The translations under genes were made by a program, and so were the position numbers. The notes under the pieces were generated by a model. The model made no database searches. It saw nothing but the letters and a program-made list of their open reading frames with translations, and was not told the DNA's origin. A DNA stretch of 64,000 nt from Candidatus Thiothrix anitrata (GTDB lineage Bacteria > Pseudomonadota > Gammaproteobacteria > Thiotrichales > Thiotrichaceae): NCBI RefSeq assembly GCF_017901155.1, contig NZ_CP072800.1, forward strand, positions 1,391,283-1,455,282, written 5' to 3'. The first letter of the stretch is position 1. Every line of letters starts with the position of its first letter. This document shows positions 5,053-13,371 of this stretch, piece by piece.

Positions 5053-6243
5053 TCAATACAACATCCCAAACAACCACAACGGAATCCGCCTGCCATCGCC
5101 GATGACTACATCATCGACCACCGCATAGCCATCTGGGTGCTGTGCCAGTTGTTTGAGCGTCTTACCCGCGCCGCCAATTTCAAATACCCAGCGGTCATCC
5201 ACGAGAAAATCGCCCTTGTCGTGGTAATGCACCTGATACTGGTAACTCAGTTGTGAGACAAAAAAACTTTCGCGTAGCGAGCCGACATTGGGGCTGGCGC
5301 ACAGCGCGTAAAACAGGTTGGTGTTATCCAGCAACAACTTGTCCGGTTTGTTGACGGTGCGCATTCCGCCGCCGCCGCGCACGATATGTACCAGACTGCC
5401 CGCGCTCATGCTGTCGAGATAGCGTGAAAGCGTCGGCCAGGACGTACCCACCCCCGCGCTCAGTTTGGAAATGTTCAATTCCACCGGGTCAGTGCTGCAC
5501 AGCATGTACAGCAGCTTTTTCAGCTTATCCAGTTTGCCGGGGTCGATGCTGTAGAGGCTGGCAAGGTCGGAATCAATCGTCAGGTTGATCACTTCCAGCA
5601 GCTTGCTGGTGTAATTATCCAGCGATTCGCGGTAGAACGGGTAAGCACCGTAATGCAGGTATTTCTTGAACTGCTCAATCGGGCGCAGCGTTTGCATGAC
5701 GTTTGCCGCAAGGTTGGCGTGATTGGCGAGGATGTCGGGCAGGGCATAGGCCGCGAAACGTTGCCCGGTTTCGATTTCCATGAATTCACGCAATGACAGT
5801 ACCGGCAATTCATGTACCACCGCACGCCGCGACAAATCCGCCAATTCGTGTTCCAGCCGTAACGCCGACGAACCGGAAAAGATCACCTGCAAATCAAAGG
5901 TATCGCGGATCGCCTTGAGGTGAATGGCAAAGCCCTTGCTCTTGTGGATTTCGTCAATCAGCAGCAGTTGCCCGCCTTCCTGGTAAAAGGTTTGCGCCAA
6001 GGCATACAGATCTACATCCACCATCGCCGGGTGGTCACAGGCAATATAGAGGATGCGGGAGGCTTCCAAGCCGCAGCTTTGCGCGTGTTGCAGCAGCACG
6101 GTGGTCTTGCCACAACCGCGTGCGCCCTTGATACCGATCAGTTGTTCGCCGAAGTCGATGCGAGTGTGCAGGAAACGGCGGTATTCTGGTTGCCGTCGGG
6201 CGAGGATCAAGGCGGATGTCTGACGGAGGATGGGGGAGATCAT
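5053..6243 (-). CDS. AAA ATPase (AAA_14/DUF4143-like group)
   Basis: This 396-residue protein has a P-loop ATPase domain at the N terminus with Walker A around residues 41-48 (GARGCGKTT) and Walker B LLLIDEIH, followed by the sensor-like FSGSSALRLEH. The C-terminal half has a winged-helix-like stretch and a nuclease-like tail (VDDRWVFEIGGAGKT). Proteins of this layout are common and scattered in bacteria, but their function is unknown. It lies divergent to the neighbouring TA pair and 10 bp before the rhtB-like gene. Two more ATPases of the same broad group occur in this window (24971-26365 and 32302-33495), each near accessory genes. Confidence 0.8.
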   Translation of the reverse strand: MISPILRQTSALILARRQPEYRRFLHTRIDFGEQLIGIKGARGCGKTTVLLQHAQSCGLEASRILYIACDHPAMVDVDLYALAQTFYQEGGQLLLIDEIHKSKGFAIHLKAIRDTFDLQVIFSGSSALRLEHELADLSRRAVVHELPVLSLREFMEIETGQRFAAYALPDILANHANLAANVMQTLRPIEQFKKYLHYGAYPFYRESLDNYTSKLLEVINLTIDSDLASLYSIDPGKLDKLKKLLYMLCSTDPVELNISKLSAGVGTSWPTLSRYLDSMSAGSLVHIVRGGGGMRTVNKPDKLLLDNTNLFYALCASPNVGSLRESFFVSQLSYQYQVHYHDKGDFLVDDRWVFEIGGAGKTLKQLAQHPDGYAVVDDVVIGDGRRIPLWLFGMLY

Positions 6244-6372: not shown

Positions 6373-6618
6373 ATGAAACAGAATATTACGCTTTCGTTGG
6401 AAAAAGAACTGCTCCAGAAAATTAAGGTACTGGCAGCGCAACGTTCTACGTCAATCAGTGCCTTGCTGACAGCGGAGCTGGAGCGTTTGGCAAAGAAAGA
6501 CGATGCCTACCTGCAAGCGATGGAGCAAGCACTAGCTTCGATGGAAAAAGGTTATGACTTCGGCGGTGGCAATTACTTAACACGCGAGGAAATGTATGAC
6601 CGCAAAAACTTTCGTTGA
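6373..6618 (+). CDS. Antitoxin of a VapBC-like pair (DUF6364-type)
   Basis: This 81-residue protein starts MKQNITLSLEKELLQKIKVLAAQ, the ribbon-helix-helix pattern of DUF6364/CopG-like antitoxins; the C-terminal part would bind the toxin. The stop overlaps the start of the PIN-domain gene by 23 bp, the usual antitoxin-first layout with translational coupling. An almost perfect ribosome site precedes the ATG. It probably represses its own promoter through the direct repeats just upstream; this is inferred from how such systems work. Confidence 0.8.
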   Translation: MKQNITLSLEKELLQKIKVLAAQRSTSISALLTAELERLAKKDDAYLQAMEQALASMEKGYDFGGGNYLTREEMYDRKNFR

Positions 6619-7054
6619 TAGCAACATTTTGTTGTATGTCTACGATCATGCGGCTGGCTGGAAGCAGGAAATCTGCAAACAAGTCGTGCAGGATTTGTGG
6701 CGACAGCGTTGCGGGGTGATTAGCACGCAGGTCATGCAAGAGTTCTACAACAATGCCACCCGTAAATTACGCAAGCCGATGACTTATGAGGCCGCCAGAG
6801 CCGAACTGAAATTGTACGAAGCGTGGGAAGTCGTGCAGGTTGACCCGTCATTGATTCAGATAGCCTCCAGCATTCAGGAAATGGTGCGGCTGTCGTTTTG
6901 GGATTCGTTGATTGTCGCGGCAGCGCAGCGGGCAAACGCCAGCGTTTTGTTGAGCGAAGACCTCAATCATGGGCAAGTGATTGGCGGGGTGCGTATTCAT
7001 AATCCGTTGTTGAATCAGGTGCAGGAAGAGGGTGGACGTTACTTACACGACTAA
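6596..7054 (+). CDS. PIN-domain ribonuclease toxin
   Basis: This is a PIN-domain protein of 152 residues, a likely VapC-type toxin that cuts RNA. The acidic metal-binding set is complete: Asp8 (FVDSN), Glu49 (QEFY), Asp103 (FWDSLIVAAA) and Asp122 (SEDLNHG). It overlaps the upstream antitoxin gene by 23 bp and converges with the TumA-like gene, overlapping its 3' end by 4 bp. The RNA target is unknown. Confidence in the PIN fold is high; the toxin role rests on the gene pairing. Confidence 0.88.
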   Translation: MTAKTFVDSNILLYVYDHAAGWKQEICKQVVQDLWRQRCGVISTQVMQEFYNNATRKLRKPMTYEAARAELKLYEAWEVVQVDPSLIQIASSIQEMVRLSFWDSLIVAAAQRANASVLLSEDLNHGQVIGGVRIHNPLLNQVQEEGGRYLHD

Positions 7055-7804: not shown

Positions 7805-10702
7805 ATGACCAAGGTTTTCATCAGTTACAGCCATGATTCTGACGCACACCGCGAGTTTGTGCGCGGCATATCCGACCGTTTGCGTAAGGAAGGGCTGGAT
7901 TGTCTGATTGACCTGTATGTGAATGGCTTTCCACCCGAAGGCTGGCAACGTTGGATGGAAAACCAGATCGAAGCGGCTGATTTTGTGTTGCTGGTTTGCA
8001 CCGAAACTTATTTGCGGCGTTACCGTGGGCAGGAAACTGACGGTGGGCGCGGTGTGACATTTGAAGGCGTGGTTATTTCACAAACGCTTTACGACCACTA
8101 TTACCGCAACACCAAGTTCATCCCGCTAATTCCGACGCATGGCAGTCTGGATCATGTGCCGCTAACACTGAAATCCTATTCGAGGTACTACCTGCCTAGT
8201 GATTACGACAAGTTGTATCGTGTGCTGACGGGGCAGGCTGAATACATTGCGCCGCCGTTGGGAGAAATCCGTTCCATGCCAGCAGCGAATGGACATGTGC
8301 CAACTTTCATCCACTCCGACCGCCTCCCCACCGTCAAAGGCGGCTTCTTCGGACGTACCGCCGAACTGCAATTGCTGAACAACGCATGGTCTGGCACAAC
8401 ACCCACCACCACCGTAGAGACGCAAAATCTTGCGTCTCTACCAACACCACCCACAACAAACACCACCACCCGCATCATCCAGTTCATCGCCCCCGGCGGC
8501 ACAGGCAAAACCAAACTGCTGCGCCACTGGCTCGACCACACCGCCGACATTCCGGTGCTGATTGCGTGGTCGTTCTATTCGCAAGGGTCAAGCGAAGACA
8601 AGCAGACTTCCGCCACGCCGTTTTTCAGCCATGCGTTTGCCAAGCTGGGTTCGACCCGAGAGCGGTTTGCGTCGGAAGAGGACAAGGGCGACCACCTCGC
8701 CGAGTTGCTGCACGGCAAACGCTACGTGCTGGTGCTGGATGGTCTGGAGCCGCTGCAACACGGCGGCGCGGCGATGCGCGGCGAACTCAAGGACAAAGCC
8801 ATCCGCCAGTTGCTGCGCCAGCTTGCCCGCCATCCGTGCGGTTTGTGCATTATCACCACGCGGATTGCGCTGCATGAACTCAGTGACCGCGACGCGCCGA
8901 CCGTCATCCGCCACGATTTGCAGAACCTGACGGTGGCGGATGGCATCCAGTTGCTGCAATCGCTGGGGGTGACGGGCAGCGCGGCGGAACTGGGCAAAGC
9001 GGTGGGTGAATACGGCGGTCATGCGCTGGCATTGAGTTTGCTGGGGAATGTATTGCGGCTGCGGCATCAGGGCGATGTGCGCAAGCGCGATACGCTCAAG
9101 GCACTGGTCAAAGCAAAGGGCAATCAAGACAGCCGCCACGCCTTCAAGGTGATGCAGGCTTACGCGGAATGGTTTGCGGGCGAGCCAGAACTGGCGTTGC
9201 TGCATTTGCTGGGGCTGTTCGATCACCCCATCGGGCAAGAGGTGCTGCAAATGCTGTGGGATGCGCAGATTCCGCACCTGACCGCAGGCATTGATGAAGA
9301 TGAATGGCTGGAAGCCATCGCCAGTTTGCGCGAAGAACACCACCTGTTGTCGCAGCATGATGGCGGCGGCGACCTCGACTGCCACCCGCTGATCCGCGAA
9401 TACTTCGGCGGGCAACTGCAAACCCAGCAACCGCAAGCGTGGCAGCAGGCGCATGAACGGCTGTACGAGTACTACAAAGCCCTGCCGGAGAAGGAGTTGC
9501 CCGATACGCTGGAAGAAATGCAGCCGCTGTTCAGTGCGGTGGCGCATGGGTGTGCGGCGGGGTTGCATCAGCAGGCGTTGGAGGAGGTTTATTGGCCTCG
9601 TATCAAACGCAAAAAAGAGGGTTTCATCGTCAAAAAACTCGGTGCTTTCAGCGATGACCTCGCTACCGTAGCGCATTTCTTCACGACCCCGTGGCACACC
9701 CCCGCAGCGGGTTTGGGGGAGGCAGAAAAAGCCGTATTGCTGAACTGGGCAGGCTTCGGCTTACGCGCCTTGGGGCGGCTGCGTGAGGCACTGGAGCCTA
9801 TGCAGGCAAGTGTTGAAATGCGTGTAAAACAAGAAGAGTGGAAAGCTGCCGCAGCCAACGCCAGCAACCTCAGCGAACTGCGACTCACCCTCGGCGATGT
9901 GGCGCAAGCGGTGGAGAGCGGCGCACGCAGCAGCCGCTACGCCGACCAGTCCGGGGATATGTTCCAGCGCATGGGTAAACGCACCACCCACGCCGATGCC
10001 CTGCATCAGGCAGGGGACACCGCAGCCGCCCTTGCCCTGTTCCGGGAAGCGGAGCAACTCCAGCAGGAACGCCAGCCTGCGTACCCGCGCCTGTATTCGC
10101 TGCAAGGTTTCCGCTACTGCGACCTGCTGCTGGCGCAGGGCAGCACGGCGGAGGTGCTGGAGCGGGCGGAATATTCCATCGAAATTGCAAAGCAAAACCG
10201 ATGGTTGCTGGACATTGCACTGGATCAACTCACCCTCGGACGCGCCCATCTGCAACAGGCTCTTCTCTCCCCCTCGCCCGCTTCGCGGGAGAGGGGGCAG
10301 GGGGGTGAGGGTCTTCACTGGCTGGAGCAGGCTGTCGCTGGTTTGCGTGCATACGGAAGCTTGCAACATTTACCTCGCGGTCTGCTCGCCCGCGCTGCGC
10401 TGCACCGCCACACCCGCAACTTCGCCCGCGCCCGGCAGGACTTACAGGAAGTGTTCGACATCGCCGACGGCAGCGGGATGCGGCTGCATTTGACGGATTA
10501 TCATTTGGAAATGGCGCGGTTGTTGGTGGCGGAGTCTCTTGCTCCTTCCCCCCTTGCGGGGGAAGGTTGGGAAGGGGGGAATAGCTGCGAAGCGGCTGAC
10601 CCTGCGTACCACATCGAAGCCGCCGCCAAGCTAATCAACGAAACCGGCTACCACCGCCGCGACAAAGAACTGCTGGAATTACAGCAAGCTATTGCTAATT
10701 AA
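7805..10702 (+). CDS. SEFIR-STAND NTPase-TPR protein, possible defence sensor
   Basis: The 965-residue protein has three parts. Residues 1-150 form a SEFIR/TIR-like domain beginning KVFISYSHDSDAHREFV and containing GWQRWMENQIEAADFVLLVCT. Next is a STAND-type NTPase with Walker A GGTGKT at residues 231-236, Walker B YVLVLDG at 307-313 and a downstream winged-helix-like region. From about residue 580 to the end, helical TPR-like repeats follow (ARSSRYADQSGD, HADALHQAGDTAAALALFREA). Known relatives with this layout act as sensors in immunity or signalling: the repeats sense, the NTPase oligomerises, the SEFIR/TIR domain acts. That role is inferred here. Three palindromic repeats are translated inside it, near residues 204-213, 820-836 and 912-926. 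It sits beside two TA pairs and 14 bp before glnE. Confidence 0.82.
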   Translation: MTKVFISYSHDSDAHREFVRGISDRLRKEGLDCLIDLYVNGFPPEGWQRWMENQIEAADFVLLVCTETYLRRYRGQETDGGRGVTFEGVVISQTLYDHYYRNTKFIPLIPTHGSLDHVPLTLKSYSRYYLPSDYDKLYRVLTGQAEYIAPPLGEIRSMPAANGHVPTFIHSDRLPTVKGGFFGRTAELQLLNNAWSGTTPTTTVETQNLASLPTPPTTNTTTRIIQFIAPGGTGKTKLLRHWLDHTADIPVLIAWSFYSQGSSEDKQTSATPFFSHAFAKLGSTRERFASEEDKGDHLAELLHGKRYVLVLDGLEPLQHGGAAMRGELKDKAIRQLLRQLARHPCGLCIITTRIALHELSDRDAPTVIRHDLQNLTVADGIQLLQSLGVTGSAAELGKAVGEYGGHALALSLLGNVLRLRHQGDVRKRDTLKALVKAKGNQDSRHAFKVMQAYAEWFAGEPELALLHLLGLFDHPIGQEVLQMLWDAQIPHLTAGIDEDEWLEAIASLREEHHLLSQHDGGGDLDCHPLIREYFGGQLQTQQPQAWQQAHERLYEYYKALPEKELPDTLEEMQPLFSAVAHGCAAGLHQQALEEVYWPRIKRKKEGFIVKKLGAFSDDLATVAHFFTTPWHTPAAGLGEAEKAVLLNWAGFGLRALGRLREALEPMQASVEMRVKQEEWKAAAANASNLSELRLTLGDVAQAVESGARSSRYADQSGDMFQRMGKRTTHADALHQAGDTAAALALFREAEQLQQERQPAYPRLYSLQGFRYCDLLLAQGSTAEVLERAEYSIEIAKQNRWLLDIALDQLTLGRAHLQQALLSPSPASRERGQGGEGLHWLEQAVAGLRAYGSLQHLPRGLLARAALHRHTRNFARARQDLQEVFDIADGSGMRLHLTDYHLEMARLLVAESLAPSPLAGEGWEGGNSCEAADPAYHIEAAAKLINETGYHRRDKELLELQQAIAN
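8414..8441. repeat. Perfect 28-bp palindromic repeat in the SEFIR gene
   Basis: The sequence has two perfect 12-bp arms (GTAGAGACGCAA and its complement) around AATC. It is read in frame as the linker between the SEFIR and NTPase domains. It resembles the short GTAGAGACGC mobile palindromes known from cyanobacteria and some other bacteria; that identity is from memory and not checked. Confidence 0.8.
10265..10311. repeat. GC-rich REP-like palindrome in the SEFIR gene (copy 1)
   Basis: A C-rich arm, a short CGCTTCGCGG turn and a G-rich arm, followed by a GGTGAGGG tail, form an imperfect hairpin read in frame within the TPR-like part as SPSPASRERGQGGEG. It matches the layout of the element at 10541-10580 and one near the start of trmO. 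Confidence 0.7.
10541..10580. repeat. GC-rich REP-like palindrome in the SEFIR gene (copy 2)
   Basis: CCTTCCCCCC, a TTGC turn and a complementary G-rich arm are followed by TTGGGAAGGGG. It is read in frame as APSPLAGEGWEGG near residue 915. Its arm-turn-arm-tail structure is shared with 10265-10311 and 40821-40856. Confidence 0.7.
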
Positions 10703-10716
10703 CGGTAAACCATCTG

Positions 10717-13371
10717 ATGACATTAACCGATGCACTTTTCACCGCCAGCCCTTACCTGCAACACCAGCTTGCCCGCCACCCCGAATGGCAAGCTTACGTG
10801 GAATCCAGCCAGCCTTACACTGCGGGCGCATTGTTGGCAAACATTGTTGCCGAAGTCCTCGCCCAACCCGATTACGACAGCGTATTGCGCACGGTACGGC
10901 TGATCCGCAACCGTGAAATGCTGCGCATTGCTTACCGCGACCTGATGGGCATGGCGGAACTCGCCGAAACCTTGCAAACCACGTCCGACCTTGCTGACGG
11001 TTTGGTGGAAGCGGCTTACCAATGGAGTTACGCCGAACTCACCGCCAAACACGGCATTCCACGCAGCCGCAGCGGTGAACCCCAGCAGATGGTGATTATC
11101 GGCATGGGCAAACTCGGCGGGCAGGAACTCAACTTTTCCTCCGACATTGACATGATTTTCGCCTTCCCCGAAGCGGGCGCAACCGATGGCAGGCGCGACC
11201 TCGATAACCAAACTTTTTTCACCCGCGTCGGGCAACGGATGATCGCCATTCTGGGGCAAACCACTGCCGATGGCATTGTGTACCGCGTCGATATGCGCTT
11301 ACGCCCCTTCGGTGAAGTTGGCGCACTCGCGCTGTCGTTCGATGCGATGGAGCATTACTACGAAACCCACGGGCGTGAATGGGAGCGTTACGCCCTGATC
11401 AAAGCGCGGGTGATGGCGGGTGACAAACACAATGGCGCGGAATTGATGGCACGCTTGCGCCCGTTTGTATTCCGCCGCTACCTCGATTACGGCGCGATTG
11501 AGCAATTGCGCGATATGAAGGCGATGATTAACCGCGAAGCTGAACGCCGGGGTAAATACCTCGATGTGAAACTCGGCACCGGCGGTATCCGCGAAATCGA
11601 ATTTACCGCGCAAGTGTTTCAGTTAATGCGCGGCGGGCGGATTCCCGAATTGCGGGGGCGTAGTTTGCTGCCGACGTTGGATGCGTTGCTGGCGCAACAA
11701 CTGCTGACGGCGGAAGAGTTTGGAGTATTGCAACCGGCGTACCATTTTCTGCGCCGCACGGAAAACCGCCTGCAAATGTGGAACGACGAACAGACGCATT
11801 CGCTGCCAACCACGCCGGAACGCCAAGCCCGCCTTGCCAGTTCGATGGGCTTTGCGGATTGGGCGAGTTTTGAAGCGGAACTCAATCGTCATCAGCGGGC
11901 GGTAGCGCAGATTTTCCAGCGCGTGTTTGCGCTCGAAACGCAGGAAAGTCAGCCGATGCCGGAACATCCCGCGATTCAAGCGCTGTTGCACAGCCGTTTG
12001 TACAACACCTTGACCGATACGGGGCGTAGCCGTTTGAATCGCTTGCTGCCTGCCTTGTGGGATGCGTGCAAGGTGCTGGCTGATCCCGAACAGGCGTTGG
12101 AACGGTGTTTACGGATTGTGCAAAAGATTGCACCGCGTTCCGGCTACATTGCCATGTTAGCGGATCACCCGAATGCATTGGAGCAGTTCGTGCGTTTGGT
12201 TAGTGATAGCTTGTGGATTACCAGCCAGTTGACCGATCACCCGATTTTGCTGGATCAATTGCTGGATTCGCGTCAGTTGTATACGCCGCTGGATCGTGAG
12301 CAATTGGGCGCGGCATTGCGGCTGGAATTGGAGCGTATTGATCAGGGCGACACCGAACAGGTGATGGAACGCTTGCGCCAATTCAAGCAGGCGCAGGTGC
12401 TTCGGGTGGCAGCGGCGGACATTACCGGCGTATTGCCGCTGATGAAGGTGTCGGATCAGTTGACCTGGATTGCCGAGGCGGTGCTGGAAGAAACCCAGCG
12501 GCACGTGTGGGCGACGATGACGGCACAAACGGGTGTGCCGTGTTACAAGGATGAGGTTGGGGAAGCGCAGCAAGCGGGGTTTGCGATTATTGCTTACGGC
12601 AAACTGGGCGGCTTGGAACTGGGTTACGGGTCTGATCTCGATATTATTTTCCTGCACGACAGCCACGGCACGGCGCAGCAAACCAATGGCAAAAAGACGC
12701 TGGAAAATGCGGTGTTCTATGCGCGTTTCGCCCAAAAAATTATTCATACGCTGACGACGTTTACCCCAGCGGGACGCTTGTACGAAACCGATACGCGCTT
12801 GCGCCCCAGCGGGGCTTCGGGTTTGCTGGTCAGTAGTTTGAATGCGTTTCGCACCTACCAGCAGGAAAAGGCGTGGGTGTGGGAACATCAGGCGTTGTTG
12901 CGGGCGCGGGTGGTTACGGGAACGGAGCGTTTGCGGGCGCAATTTGAGCAGGTGCGCCATGACATAGTGTGCCAACCGCGTGACAAGGCGGTATTACGCA
13001 AGGAAGTGATTGCGATGCGCCAGAAAATGTGGGAAAGCATGGCGAGTAAGGATGCCCGAGTGTTTAACCTGAAAAAAGATCCTGGCGGGGTGACAGACAT
13101 TGAATTTATTGTGCAATTCCTGATTCTGGCACACGCGCATGAACACCCGGAATTGGTGCGCTGGAGCGACAATATTCGCCAACTGGATTCGTTGCAGGTG
13201 GCAGGCGTTTTGCCAGCGGATACGGCGGAAGCATTGGCGGATGCCTACCGCACCTTGCGTGACCGTATCCACGAACTGTCGTTGCAGGAGCAGGAAGCAG
13301 TGGTTGATGCGGGGCAGTTTGTGTGCGAACGGGAGGTGGTCAGGGCGGCTTGGGTTGCTTGCCTTGGTTAA
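10717..13371 (+). CDS. glnE: Bifunctional glutamine synthetase adenylyltransferase/deadenylase
   Basis: GlnE adds and removes AMP on glutamine synthetase in response to PII, tuning ammonia assimilation. The 884-residue protein has both nucleotidyltransferase halves: N-terminal GMGKLGGQELNFSSDIDMIF (deadenylase) and C-terminal AYGKLGGLELGYGSDLDIIF (adenylylase), joined by the regulatory linker. It is shorter than the E. coli protein (946 residues), mostly through a missing N-terminal stretch of about 35 residues. No clear ribosome site precedes the ATG, and the SEFIR gene ends 14 bp upstream, so it may depend on read-through or an internal promoter. The 3' end overlaps the convergent HtrA-like gene by 4 bp. 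Confidence 0.95.
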   Translation: MTLTDALFTASPYLQHQLARHPEWQAYVESSQPYTAGALLANIVAEVLAQPDYDSVLRTVRLIRNREMLRIAYRDLMGMAELAETLQTTSDLADGLVEAAYQWSYAELTAKHGIPRSRSGEPQQMVIIGMGKLGGQELNFSSDIDMIFAFPEAGATDGRRDLDNQTFFTRVGQRMIAILGQTTADGIVYRVDMRLRPFGEVGALALSFDAMEHYYETHGREWERYALIKARVMAGDKHNGAELMARLRPFVFRRYLDYGAIEQLRDMKAMINREAERRGKYLDVKLGTGGIREIEFTAQVFQLMRGGRIPELRGRSLLPTLDALLAQQLLTAEEFGVLQPAYHFLRRTENRLQMWNDEQTHSLPTTPERQARLASSMGFADWASFEAELNRHQRAVAQIFQRVFALETQESQPMPEHPAIQALLHSRLYNTLTDTGRSRLNRLLPALWDACKVLADPEQALERCLRIVQKIAPRSGYIAMLADHPNALEQFVRLVSDSLWITSQLTDHPILLDQLLDSRQLYTPLDREQLGAALRLELERIDQGDTEQVMERLRQFKQAQVLRVAAADITGVLPLMKVSDQLTWIAEAVLEETQRHVWATMTAQTGVPCYKDEVGEAQQAGFAIIAYGKLGGLELGYGSDLDIIFLHDSHGTAQQTNGKKTLENAVFYARFAQKIIHTLTTFTPAGRLYETDTRLRPSGASGLLVSSLNAFRTYQQEKAWVWEHQALLRARVVTGTERLRAQFEQVRHDIVCQPRDKAVLRKEVIAMRQKMWESMASKDARVFNLKKDPGGVTDIEFIVQFLILAHAHEHPELVRWSDNIRQLDSLQVAGVLPADTAEALADAYRTLRDRIHELSLQEQEAVVDAGQFVCEREVVRAAWVACLG

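What the first reader, a model, noticed from the sequence alone, without database searches (positions are those of the whole stretch)
7805..10702. SEFIR-STAND-TPR protein as a possible uncharacterised defence system
Seen: a SEFIR/TIR-like N terminus, a STAND NTPase with Walker A at residues 231-236 and Walker B at 307-313, and a TPR-like C terminus, beside two TA pairs. Established: proteins with a TIR-type effector, STAND core and repeat sensor act in bacterial immunity and signalling. Inference: this is a single-gene anti-phage sensor whose SEFIR domain is the effector. SEFIR effectors are less studied than TIR ones.
Basis: partly seen in the sequence, partly recalled or inferred. Interest (0 to 1): 0.75.

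Follow-up and report, generated by a model that had tools for sequence, protein, structure and literature searches.

The report
Bacterial immune-receptor gene with swappable effectors
A sulfur bacterium carries a gene built like animal and plant immune receptors, and in related species the same gene, often at the same chromosomal spot, has had its presumed killing part and its presumed sensing part exchanged.

Summary
Window 7805-10702 (+) encodes 965 aa: a SEFIR domain (Pfam E 3.5e-14), a STAND NTPase (GGTGKT 231-236) and a TPR superhelix; the host is inferred to be Thiothrix. The modelled core resembles a solved STAND-TPR protein, MalT, Apaf-1 and plant NRC2. The Glu at residue 87 is kept in 35 of 35 bacterial SEFIRs compared, not in human Act1.

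The larger finding is modularity. Among 39 distinct cores (this one included) the N-terminus is SEFIR (17), TIR (10), membrane segment (5), hydrolase (2), HTH (2), ATPase (1), or a short adaptor beside a separate SEFIR gene (2); the labels need 23 changes on the core tree (shuffled mean 26.1). One chromosomal site holds different effectors in eight genomes, in six other receptors with a 96-99% identical NTPase; the TPR region is diverged or replaced. The genome's paralogue is a split SEFIR + STAND pair sharing a 47-aa domain without Pfam match, also found on TIR, SIR2 and trypsin-like proteins.

Best reading: an NLR-like immune receptor with a SEFIR, probably NADase, effector: a new variant of known kinds. 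Neighbours showed no defence-gene enrichment; phage defence is inferred.

The parts
7805..10702 (+). SEFIR-STAND-TPR receptor gene, 965 aa
7805..8284 (+). SEFIR effector domain, residues 1-160; conserved Glu87 at 8063-8065
8308..8344 (+). Effector/receptor junction (protein IHSDRLPTVKGGF): DNA similarity to relatives with other N-termini begins here
   Evidence: BLASTN pieces begin at 8308 or 8309 in L026, L052, L030, L025 (two genes) and L050, at 8302 in L043
8346..9484 (+). STAND NTPase and following helical region, about residues 181-560 (GR..EL 183-188, Walker A 231-236, Walker B 307-313)
   Evidence: omega 0.05-0.15 for residues 220-430 in 10 of 11 pairs, 0.25 in the eleventh
8414..8441 (.). 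In-frame palindromic repeat R1 (GTAGAGACGC...GCGTCTCTAC), loop before Walker A
   Evidence: (8 places in the genome); pLDDT under 50 at residues 199-219
9605..10699 (+). TPR region, presumed sensor; residues 601-815 are 29-82% identical in 11 relatives compared
   Evidence: DNA similarity stops at 9609-9663 and resumes at 10366-10370 in L024, L041, L052, and stops at 9590 and resumes at 10206 in the second gene of L043
10262..10312 (.). In-frame palindromic repeat R2 between TPR helices (exact pattern match 10287-10311)
   Evidence: pLDDT under 50 at 823-832
10542..10579 (.). In-frame palindromic repeat R3 in a TPR loop (exact pattern match 10544-10566)
   Evidence: pLDDT under 50 at 915-929
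5053..6243 (-). AAA_14 ATPase gene, marker of this chromosomal site in 8 genomes (96-98% aa identity)
6373..7054 (+). Small putative antitoxin + PIN toxin pair, kept at the site in L026 and L049
7051..7733 (-). TumE + HVO_A0114 pair; the BLASTN pieces of the other genomes at this site do not cover it
10717..13371 (+). glnE, starting 14 bases after the receptor gene; beyond the AAA_14 gene instead in L024, L040, L043

Best explanation
It is a bacterial NLR-like (STAND) immune receptor. At rest the STAND NTPase, about residues 181-560, holds the protein inactive (inferred from Apaf-1, MalT and NRC2). A molecule of an invader, most likely a phage protein, binds the fast-diverging TPR superhelix (residues about 600-965; inferred). 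Nucleotide exchange lets the NTPase oligomerise and brings the SEFIR domains together, which then act as a TIR-like NAD+-consuming enzyme using Glu87 and stop the infected cell (inferred). Shown here: the three-part build, SEFIR sequence and fold with an invariant Glu, strong constraint on the NTPase, block exchange of effectors and of the TPR region among close relatives at one chromosomal site, and a split paralogue in which SEFIR and receptor share a homologous domain.
For: Domains and fold. Glu87 kept in 35 of 35 distinct bacterial SEFIR stretches, Ile at that position in human Act1. 39 distinct cores with seven kinds of N-terminus; 23 label changes on the core tree, minimum 9, shuffled mean 26.1. 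Same AAA_14-linked site in 8 genomes: SEFIR in 4, TIR in 1, hydrolase in 1, hydrolase + TIR in 1, four receptors in 1. NTPase 93-99% identical and omega 0.05-0.15 in 10 of 11 pairs; residues 601-815 29-82%, omega 0.36-0.63 in the 6 pairs where it could be estimated. Split SEFIR-X / X-STAND paralogue. SEFIR listed in print as NAD+-depleting defence (passages).
Confidence: 0.7

Rival explanations
1. A kin- or strain-recognition (incompatibility-like) receptor of a filamentous bacterium: the polymorphic TPR senses proteins of unlike strains and the exchanged effectors kill or arrest the cell, as NLR-like het genes do in fungi.
For: Effector and TPR region vary at one fixed site among species; no defence-gene context seen. 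The idea is in print for STAND systems of multicellular bacteria (PMC10907252, section 19 read).
Against: No cell fusion or delivery route is known here (recalled); SEFIR and STAND proteins have phage precedents; only between-species, not within-population, variation was seen.
Confidence: 0.12
2. A MalT-like signalling or regulatory protein (STAND-TPR) answering a small metabolite or peptide, with the SEFIR domain as a protein-interaction module, as in animal IL-17 receptors.
For: MalT and the STAND-TPR protein 6mfv are among the best fold matches, and Rap/NprR peptide sensors also match the TPR part; two relatives carry an HTH; glnE follows 14 bases downstream.
Against: 27 of 39 N-termini are SEFIR or TIR, the SEFIRs with an invariant Glu, and the kinds are exchanged almost freely; glnE lies elsewhere in L024, L040, L043; a metabolite sensor should not be among the most diverged parts.
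Confidence: 0.13
3. A decaying gene kept open by chance, riddled with repeats.
For: Three palindromic repeat families lie in one ORF; some relatives are split or truncated (L051).
Against: Omega 0.05-0.15 in the NTPase in 10 of 11 pairs; the repeats keep the frame and sit in low-confidence loops of the model; 39 distinct cores.
Confidence: 0.03

Closest known systems
bSEFIR (bacterial SEFIR defence; PADLOC PDLC03957)
   Same: N-terminal SEFIR domain, E 1.2e-41; listed elsewhere as an NAD+-depleting system (table and text passages of PMC12322248, a passage of PMC12774641)
   Different: only positions 39-197 of the 412-position profile match; here a STAND NTPase and TPR follow
Avs / antiviral STAND and bacterial NACHT proteins
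   Same: N-terminal effector, central STAND NTPase, C-terminal repeat sensor (described in passages of PMC10907252)
   Different: SEFIR effector and an AP-ATPase/MalT-like NTPase; PADLOC returned no Avs profile at E up to 1
STAND-TPR protein 6mfv, MalT, Apaf-1, plant NRC2
   Different: no SEFIR; other outputs
Prokaryotic SEFIR domain 5y8e/5y8f
   Same: sequence E 3e-19 and fold; Glu aligned with Glu87
   Different: solved as a domain of 144-154 residues without a receptor
Fungal NLRs with SEFIR/TIR-like N-termini
   Same: SEFIR-like effector on an NLR (passage of PMC9815663)
   Different: eukaryotic; sequence relation to this protein not tested
Effector-associated domains (EADs) of Kaur et al.
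   Same: small non-enzymatic domain shared by a core protein and its separately coded effector (passages of PMC7159879 and PMC8195603)
   Different: the 47-aa domain X here gives no Pfam match, in a library that holds EAD1 and EAD8

Membership tests
SEFIR domain (Pfam PF08357) | profile score over the curated cut-off | tested here: met
   53.8 bits against 23
SEFIR/TIR NAD+-consuming enzymes | conserved Glu in the C-helix region | tested here: met
   35 of 35 distinct bacterial SEFIR stretches carry Glu; a 36th hit, a TIR protein with no residue there, was left out. That it equals the TIR catalytic Glu is inferred
SEFIR/TIR NAD+-consuming enzymes | NAD+ cleavage | not testable with these tools
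   needs an assay
bSEFIR single-gene defence system | match over the full length of the family profile | tested here: not met
   positions 39-197 of 412 only
bSEFIR single-gene defence system | protection against phage | not testable with these tools
   no experiment
STAND NTPase | Walker A, Walker B and fold of NTPase plus helical domains | tested here: met
Avs (antiviral STAND) | three-part effector-STAND-repeat build | tested here: met
Avs (antiviral STAND) | match to an Avs profile | tested here: inconclusive
   none returned at E up to 1; that this library holds Avs profiles is recalled
Avs (antiviral STAND) | recognition of a phage protein | not testable with these tools
   needs co-expression
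Effector-associated domain (EAD), for the 47-aa domain X | small domain present both on a core protein and on a neighbouring effector, copies of one locus related | tested here: met
   SEFIR-X and X-STAND adjacent, local scores 138 (L048) and 143 (L023), reached by 0 of 500 shuffles each; trypsin-like-X and X-SIR2 about 5 kb apart
Effector-associated domain (EAD), for the 47-aa domain X | match to a named EAD family | tested here: not met
   0 Pfam families at E up to 5 for X alone (HMMER's filters drop most weak matches); EAD1 and EAD8 not found in the genome, searches without a positive control; the published EAD alignments were not compared

The most novel reading that the evidence does not exclude
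Thiothrix keeps an allelic immune-receptor locus: a core NTPase onto which effector cassettes (SEFIR, TIR, hydrolase, membrane, ATPase) are exchanged at one junction and sensor cassettes at others, with a previously unnamed 47-aa adaptor domain that lets SEFIR, TIR, SIR2 and protease effectors be recruited in trans, so that a family of receptors draws on a shared pool of death effectors; in-frame palindromes mark the joints and may help the exchange.
Probability: 0.3. Interest if true: 0.75.

Novelty: new variant of a known kind. Interest (0 to 1): 0.55.

Why it matters
It gives a natural series of receptors with nearly the same switch and different effectors or sensors, so effector and sensor specificity can be tested by simple domain swaps. 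The split paralogue in the same genome offers a minimal test of adaptor-mediated effector recruitment. If the SEFIR is a NADase, it would bear on whether the scaffold role of SEFIR in animal IL-17 signalling goes back to an enzyme that lost its activity.

Tried and rejected
Defence-gene context: looked for and not found. PADLOC at E up to 1e-5 listed 48 families over 150 neighbour proteins and 287 families over 140 control ORFs; only the first 25 of each list were shown, no family had more than 3 members in the first or 2 in the second, and the control number is inflated by many related models (restriction-modification, PDC-S01) matching few proteins. The neighbours were 150 of 185 non-redundant proteins from 33 of 38 sources, those over 900 aa dropped and the rest drawn at random, with one listed reference replaced by the TumE gene. 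The controls were 140 of 203 ORFs of the window's own genome, from regions partly chosen because they hold palindromes, so not random. Recurring neighbours are PIN-type toxin-antitoxin pairs, a DUF3037 pair (HipA-like partner: recalled) and, at the shared site, rnf-like genes.

Mobility: no plasmid or phage record carries most of the protein.

Positive selection in the sensor: omega 0.36-0.63 in 6 of 11 pairs, not estimable (saturated) in 5; the 11 were chosen by me from 38 other cores.

Palindromes as the cause of the exchange: not shown. The effector junction (8308) lies about 100 bases before the first palindrome (8414), and relatives without a palindrome there share the junction. The general inverted-repeat finder did not list the three palindromes at all (7 other pairs); they rest on pattern searches. 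My palindrome score was harsh: at site 2 only 1 of 20 met both score and shuffle limits, 7 of 20 the shuffle limit alone.

Avs kinship by profile: inconclusive. Foldseek ranks for the full model are mixed with unrelated repeat proteins. Papers: passages only for PMC8195603, PMC7159879, PMC13142454, PMC12322248, PMC12774641, PMC9815663, PMC11797021, PMC3733652; passages and section 19 for PMC10907252; the original bSEFIR paper was not seen. That I met no description of SEFIR-STAND-TPR in Thiothrix rests only on the searches.

Full report

HOST. The window is G000:C1:1391283-1455282 of a 3.55 Mb single-contig genome. The closest named relatives are Thiothrix, and contigs of genus mates have the lengths of named Thiothrix records (G053:C6 and NZ_JAFMPM010000006.1, T. 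fructosivorans, both 1938437 bases). The name of the host is therefore inferred; that Thiothrix is filamentous is recalled.

EFFECTOR EXCHANGE. A match was found in 29 of 60 family genomes and at 17 loci of genome contigs. Among 39 distinct cores whose N-terminal boundary was visible, the window's included, the N-terminus is SEFIR in 17 (two subtypes, 11 and 6), TIR in 10 (three subtypes), a membrane segment in 5 (by a simple hydrophobicity count), alpha/beta hydrolase in 2, HTH in 2, a KGGVGR-type ATPase in 1, and domain X in 2. Representatives were checked in Pfam: SEFIR, TIR_2, HTH and AAA_31 over cut-off; the hydrolase at or below it; the KGGVGR name is recalled. On a tree of the NTPase region (39 rows; 14 of 36 inner branches starred) the ten labels need 23 changes; the minimum is 9, and shuffled labels need 26.1 on average, as low in 7 of 200. 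The nearest rows to the window gene carry SEFIR, membrane and TIR N-termini, at path lengths 0.029-0.034.

ONE SITE, MANY EFFECTORS. In 8 of the 13 genus genomes (loci: window, L024, L026, L040, L041, L043, L049, L051) the receptor lies beside the same AAA_14 ATPase gene, 96-98% identical in protein. The site holds SEFIR in four (window, L024, L040, L041), TIR in L026, hydrolase in L049, hydrolase plus TIR in L043, and in L051/L052 two SEFIR genes, a KGGVGR one and a TIR one. Of these eleven other receptors, six (L024, L026, L040, L041, the second of L043, and L052) have an NTPase 96-99% identical to the window's; the two hydrolase and three of the four array receptors are diverged throughout (46-60% in BLASTP), so there more than the effector differs. 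L026 and L049 match the window DNA at 92.4% and 95.9% up to 7083, lose it, and regain it at 8308 and 9372. Similarity to relatives with other N-termini begins at 8308 or 8309 in six comparisons (L026, L052, L030, two genes of L025, L050) and at 8302 in L043. The SEFIR module with 49 bases upstream (from 7756) is kept in L024, L040 and L041, and up to 8118 in L048.

SENSOR EXCHANGE. Against 11 relatives that I chose the NTPase (residues 220-430) is 93-99% identical in ten, omega 0.05-0.15, and 67% in L027 (omega 0.25). Residues 601-815 range from 29% to 82%. L041 and L024 keep 94% and 91% of the SEFIR and 96% and 98% of the NTPase but only 32% and 29% of this region; their DNA similarity stops at 9609 and 9614 and resumes at 10366 and 10370. 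Omega there is 0.36-0.63 in six pairs and not estimable in five. This is rapid divergence and block replacement, not proof of positive selection. L034 and L046 show another exchange: a far-diverged NTPase (branch 2.65) joined to the family TPR.

TWO-PIECE VERSION AND DOMAIN X. The genome's other SEFIR (G000:C1 at 3448 kb, locus L048) is a 228-aa SEFIR protein followed, three bases after its stop and in the same frame, by an 839-aa STAND-TPR protein. The end of the first and the start of the second are homologous over 47 residues (score 138; best of 500 shuffles 51); so are those of the pair in L023, which is two bases apart and in different frames (score 143; best shuffle 50). X alone gives no Pfam match at E up to 5. 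In the same genome X also ends a trypsin-like protein (Trypsin_2, 26.2 bits, just under its cut-off of 27.6) and begins a SIR2_2 protein about 5 kb away, beside Trypco1 and nSTAND1 genes; it ends a TIR protein in L146 (BLASTP 57% over 44 residues) and a protein of L051 that looks membrane-bound and Ig-like (Pfam below cut-off), next to a CHAT protein. X was found in 12 of 60 family genomes. This is the pattern that Kaur et al. describe for effector-associated domains (passages), and it shows a SEFIR coded apart from, and next to, this kind of receptor. Homotypic binding is inferred.

IN-FRAME PALINDROMES. Three unrelated palindromic repeats lie in this ORF, from about residues 204, 820 and 913, in loops of low confidence; in the whole window the patterns matched only here. 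Genome-wide the exact patterns occur at 8 places (R1), 31 half-sites (R2) and 10 places (R3), with none for the reversed control patterns; 4 of 8, 16 of 31 and 8 of 10 lie inside mechanical ORFs of at least 100 aa, the window copies counted. By arithmetic from these counts, a gene of this length should hold about 0.007, 0.03 and 0.008 of them. Relatives carry palindromes, often different ones, in the same loops. Site 3: 22 of 23 delimited genes have at least 12 aa there; 10 meet both my score and shuffle limits, 13 the shuffle limit alone. Site 1: 6 of 28 are long, 5 meet both (the window gene is listed twice). Site 2: 15 of 20 are long, 1 meets both, 7 the shuffle limit alone (shuffle-only counts by hand from its rows). 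Repeats inside genes are known (passages of PMC3733652). A role in module exchange is possible, not shown.

DISTRIBUTION AND CONTEXT. SEFIR occurs in 14 of 398 genomes of the phylum; outside the window genome its 13 matches lie in open frames of 203-478 aa. The STAND-TPR core occurs in 7 of 369 class genomes at E up to 1e-20. Nitrosomonas and a Methylococcaceae bin carry it too.

MECHANISM. Shown: build, fold, conserved Glu, constrained switch, exchanged effector, diverged TPR region, split version with a shared domain. Inferred: ligand from phage, oligomerisation on binding, NAD+ consumption, cell arrest. The rivals are strain recognition (0.12) and MalT-like regulation (0.13).

VERDICT. The added value is the exchange series at one locus and domain X.

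Noticed in passing
L144:6593-11781 (G000:C1 about 52.6-57.8 kb): Second conflict-system-like locus of the same genome: trypsin-like-X, Trypco1, nSTAND1, X-SIR2; relatives in L145 and L146 (in L146 with TIR-X and an nSTAND1-HEAT protein).
   Followed up: partly
L048:8241-11450: SEFIR-X and X-STAND-TPR genes in one frame, with one codon between the stop and the next ATG; a similar pair in L023:11221-14495 is two bases apart and in different frames.
   Followed up: yes
L051:1-3651 and L041:2012-2668: Proteins that look membrane-bound (in L051 with weak Ig-like matches) and end in domain X; the one in L051 lies next to a TPR-CHAT protein, upstream of the receptor array.
   Followed up: partly
window 8414-8441, 10262-10312, 10542-10579; L085-L118: Palindromic repeats read in frame inside a good part of the ORFs that hold them elsewhere in this genome (4 of 8, 16 of 31, 8 of 10 for the three patterns).
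   Followed up: partly
L034:8001-10898, L046:8344-11253: Chimeras: SEFIR and family TPR with a far-diverged NTPase, so the NTPase module is exchanged too.
   Followed up: no
L051:8642-15466: Two SEFIR receptors of the array lie in two ORFs each (649+341 and 658+283 aa); described only.
   Followed up: no
window 5053-6243: AAA_14 ATPase, 96-98% identical across eight genomes at the variable site; matches PADLOC candidate PDC-S01 (E 5e-24), but AAA_14 and PDC-S01 matches also occur among the control ORFs.
   Followed up: partly
L018/L057 and L022: Receptor relatives with an XRE-type HTH in the effector place, hinting at a transcriptional output.
   Followed up: no
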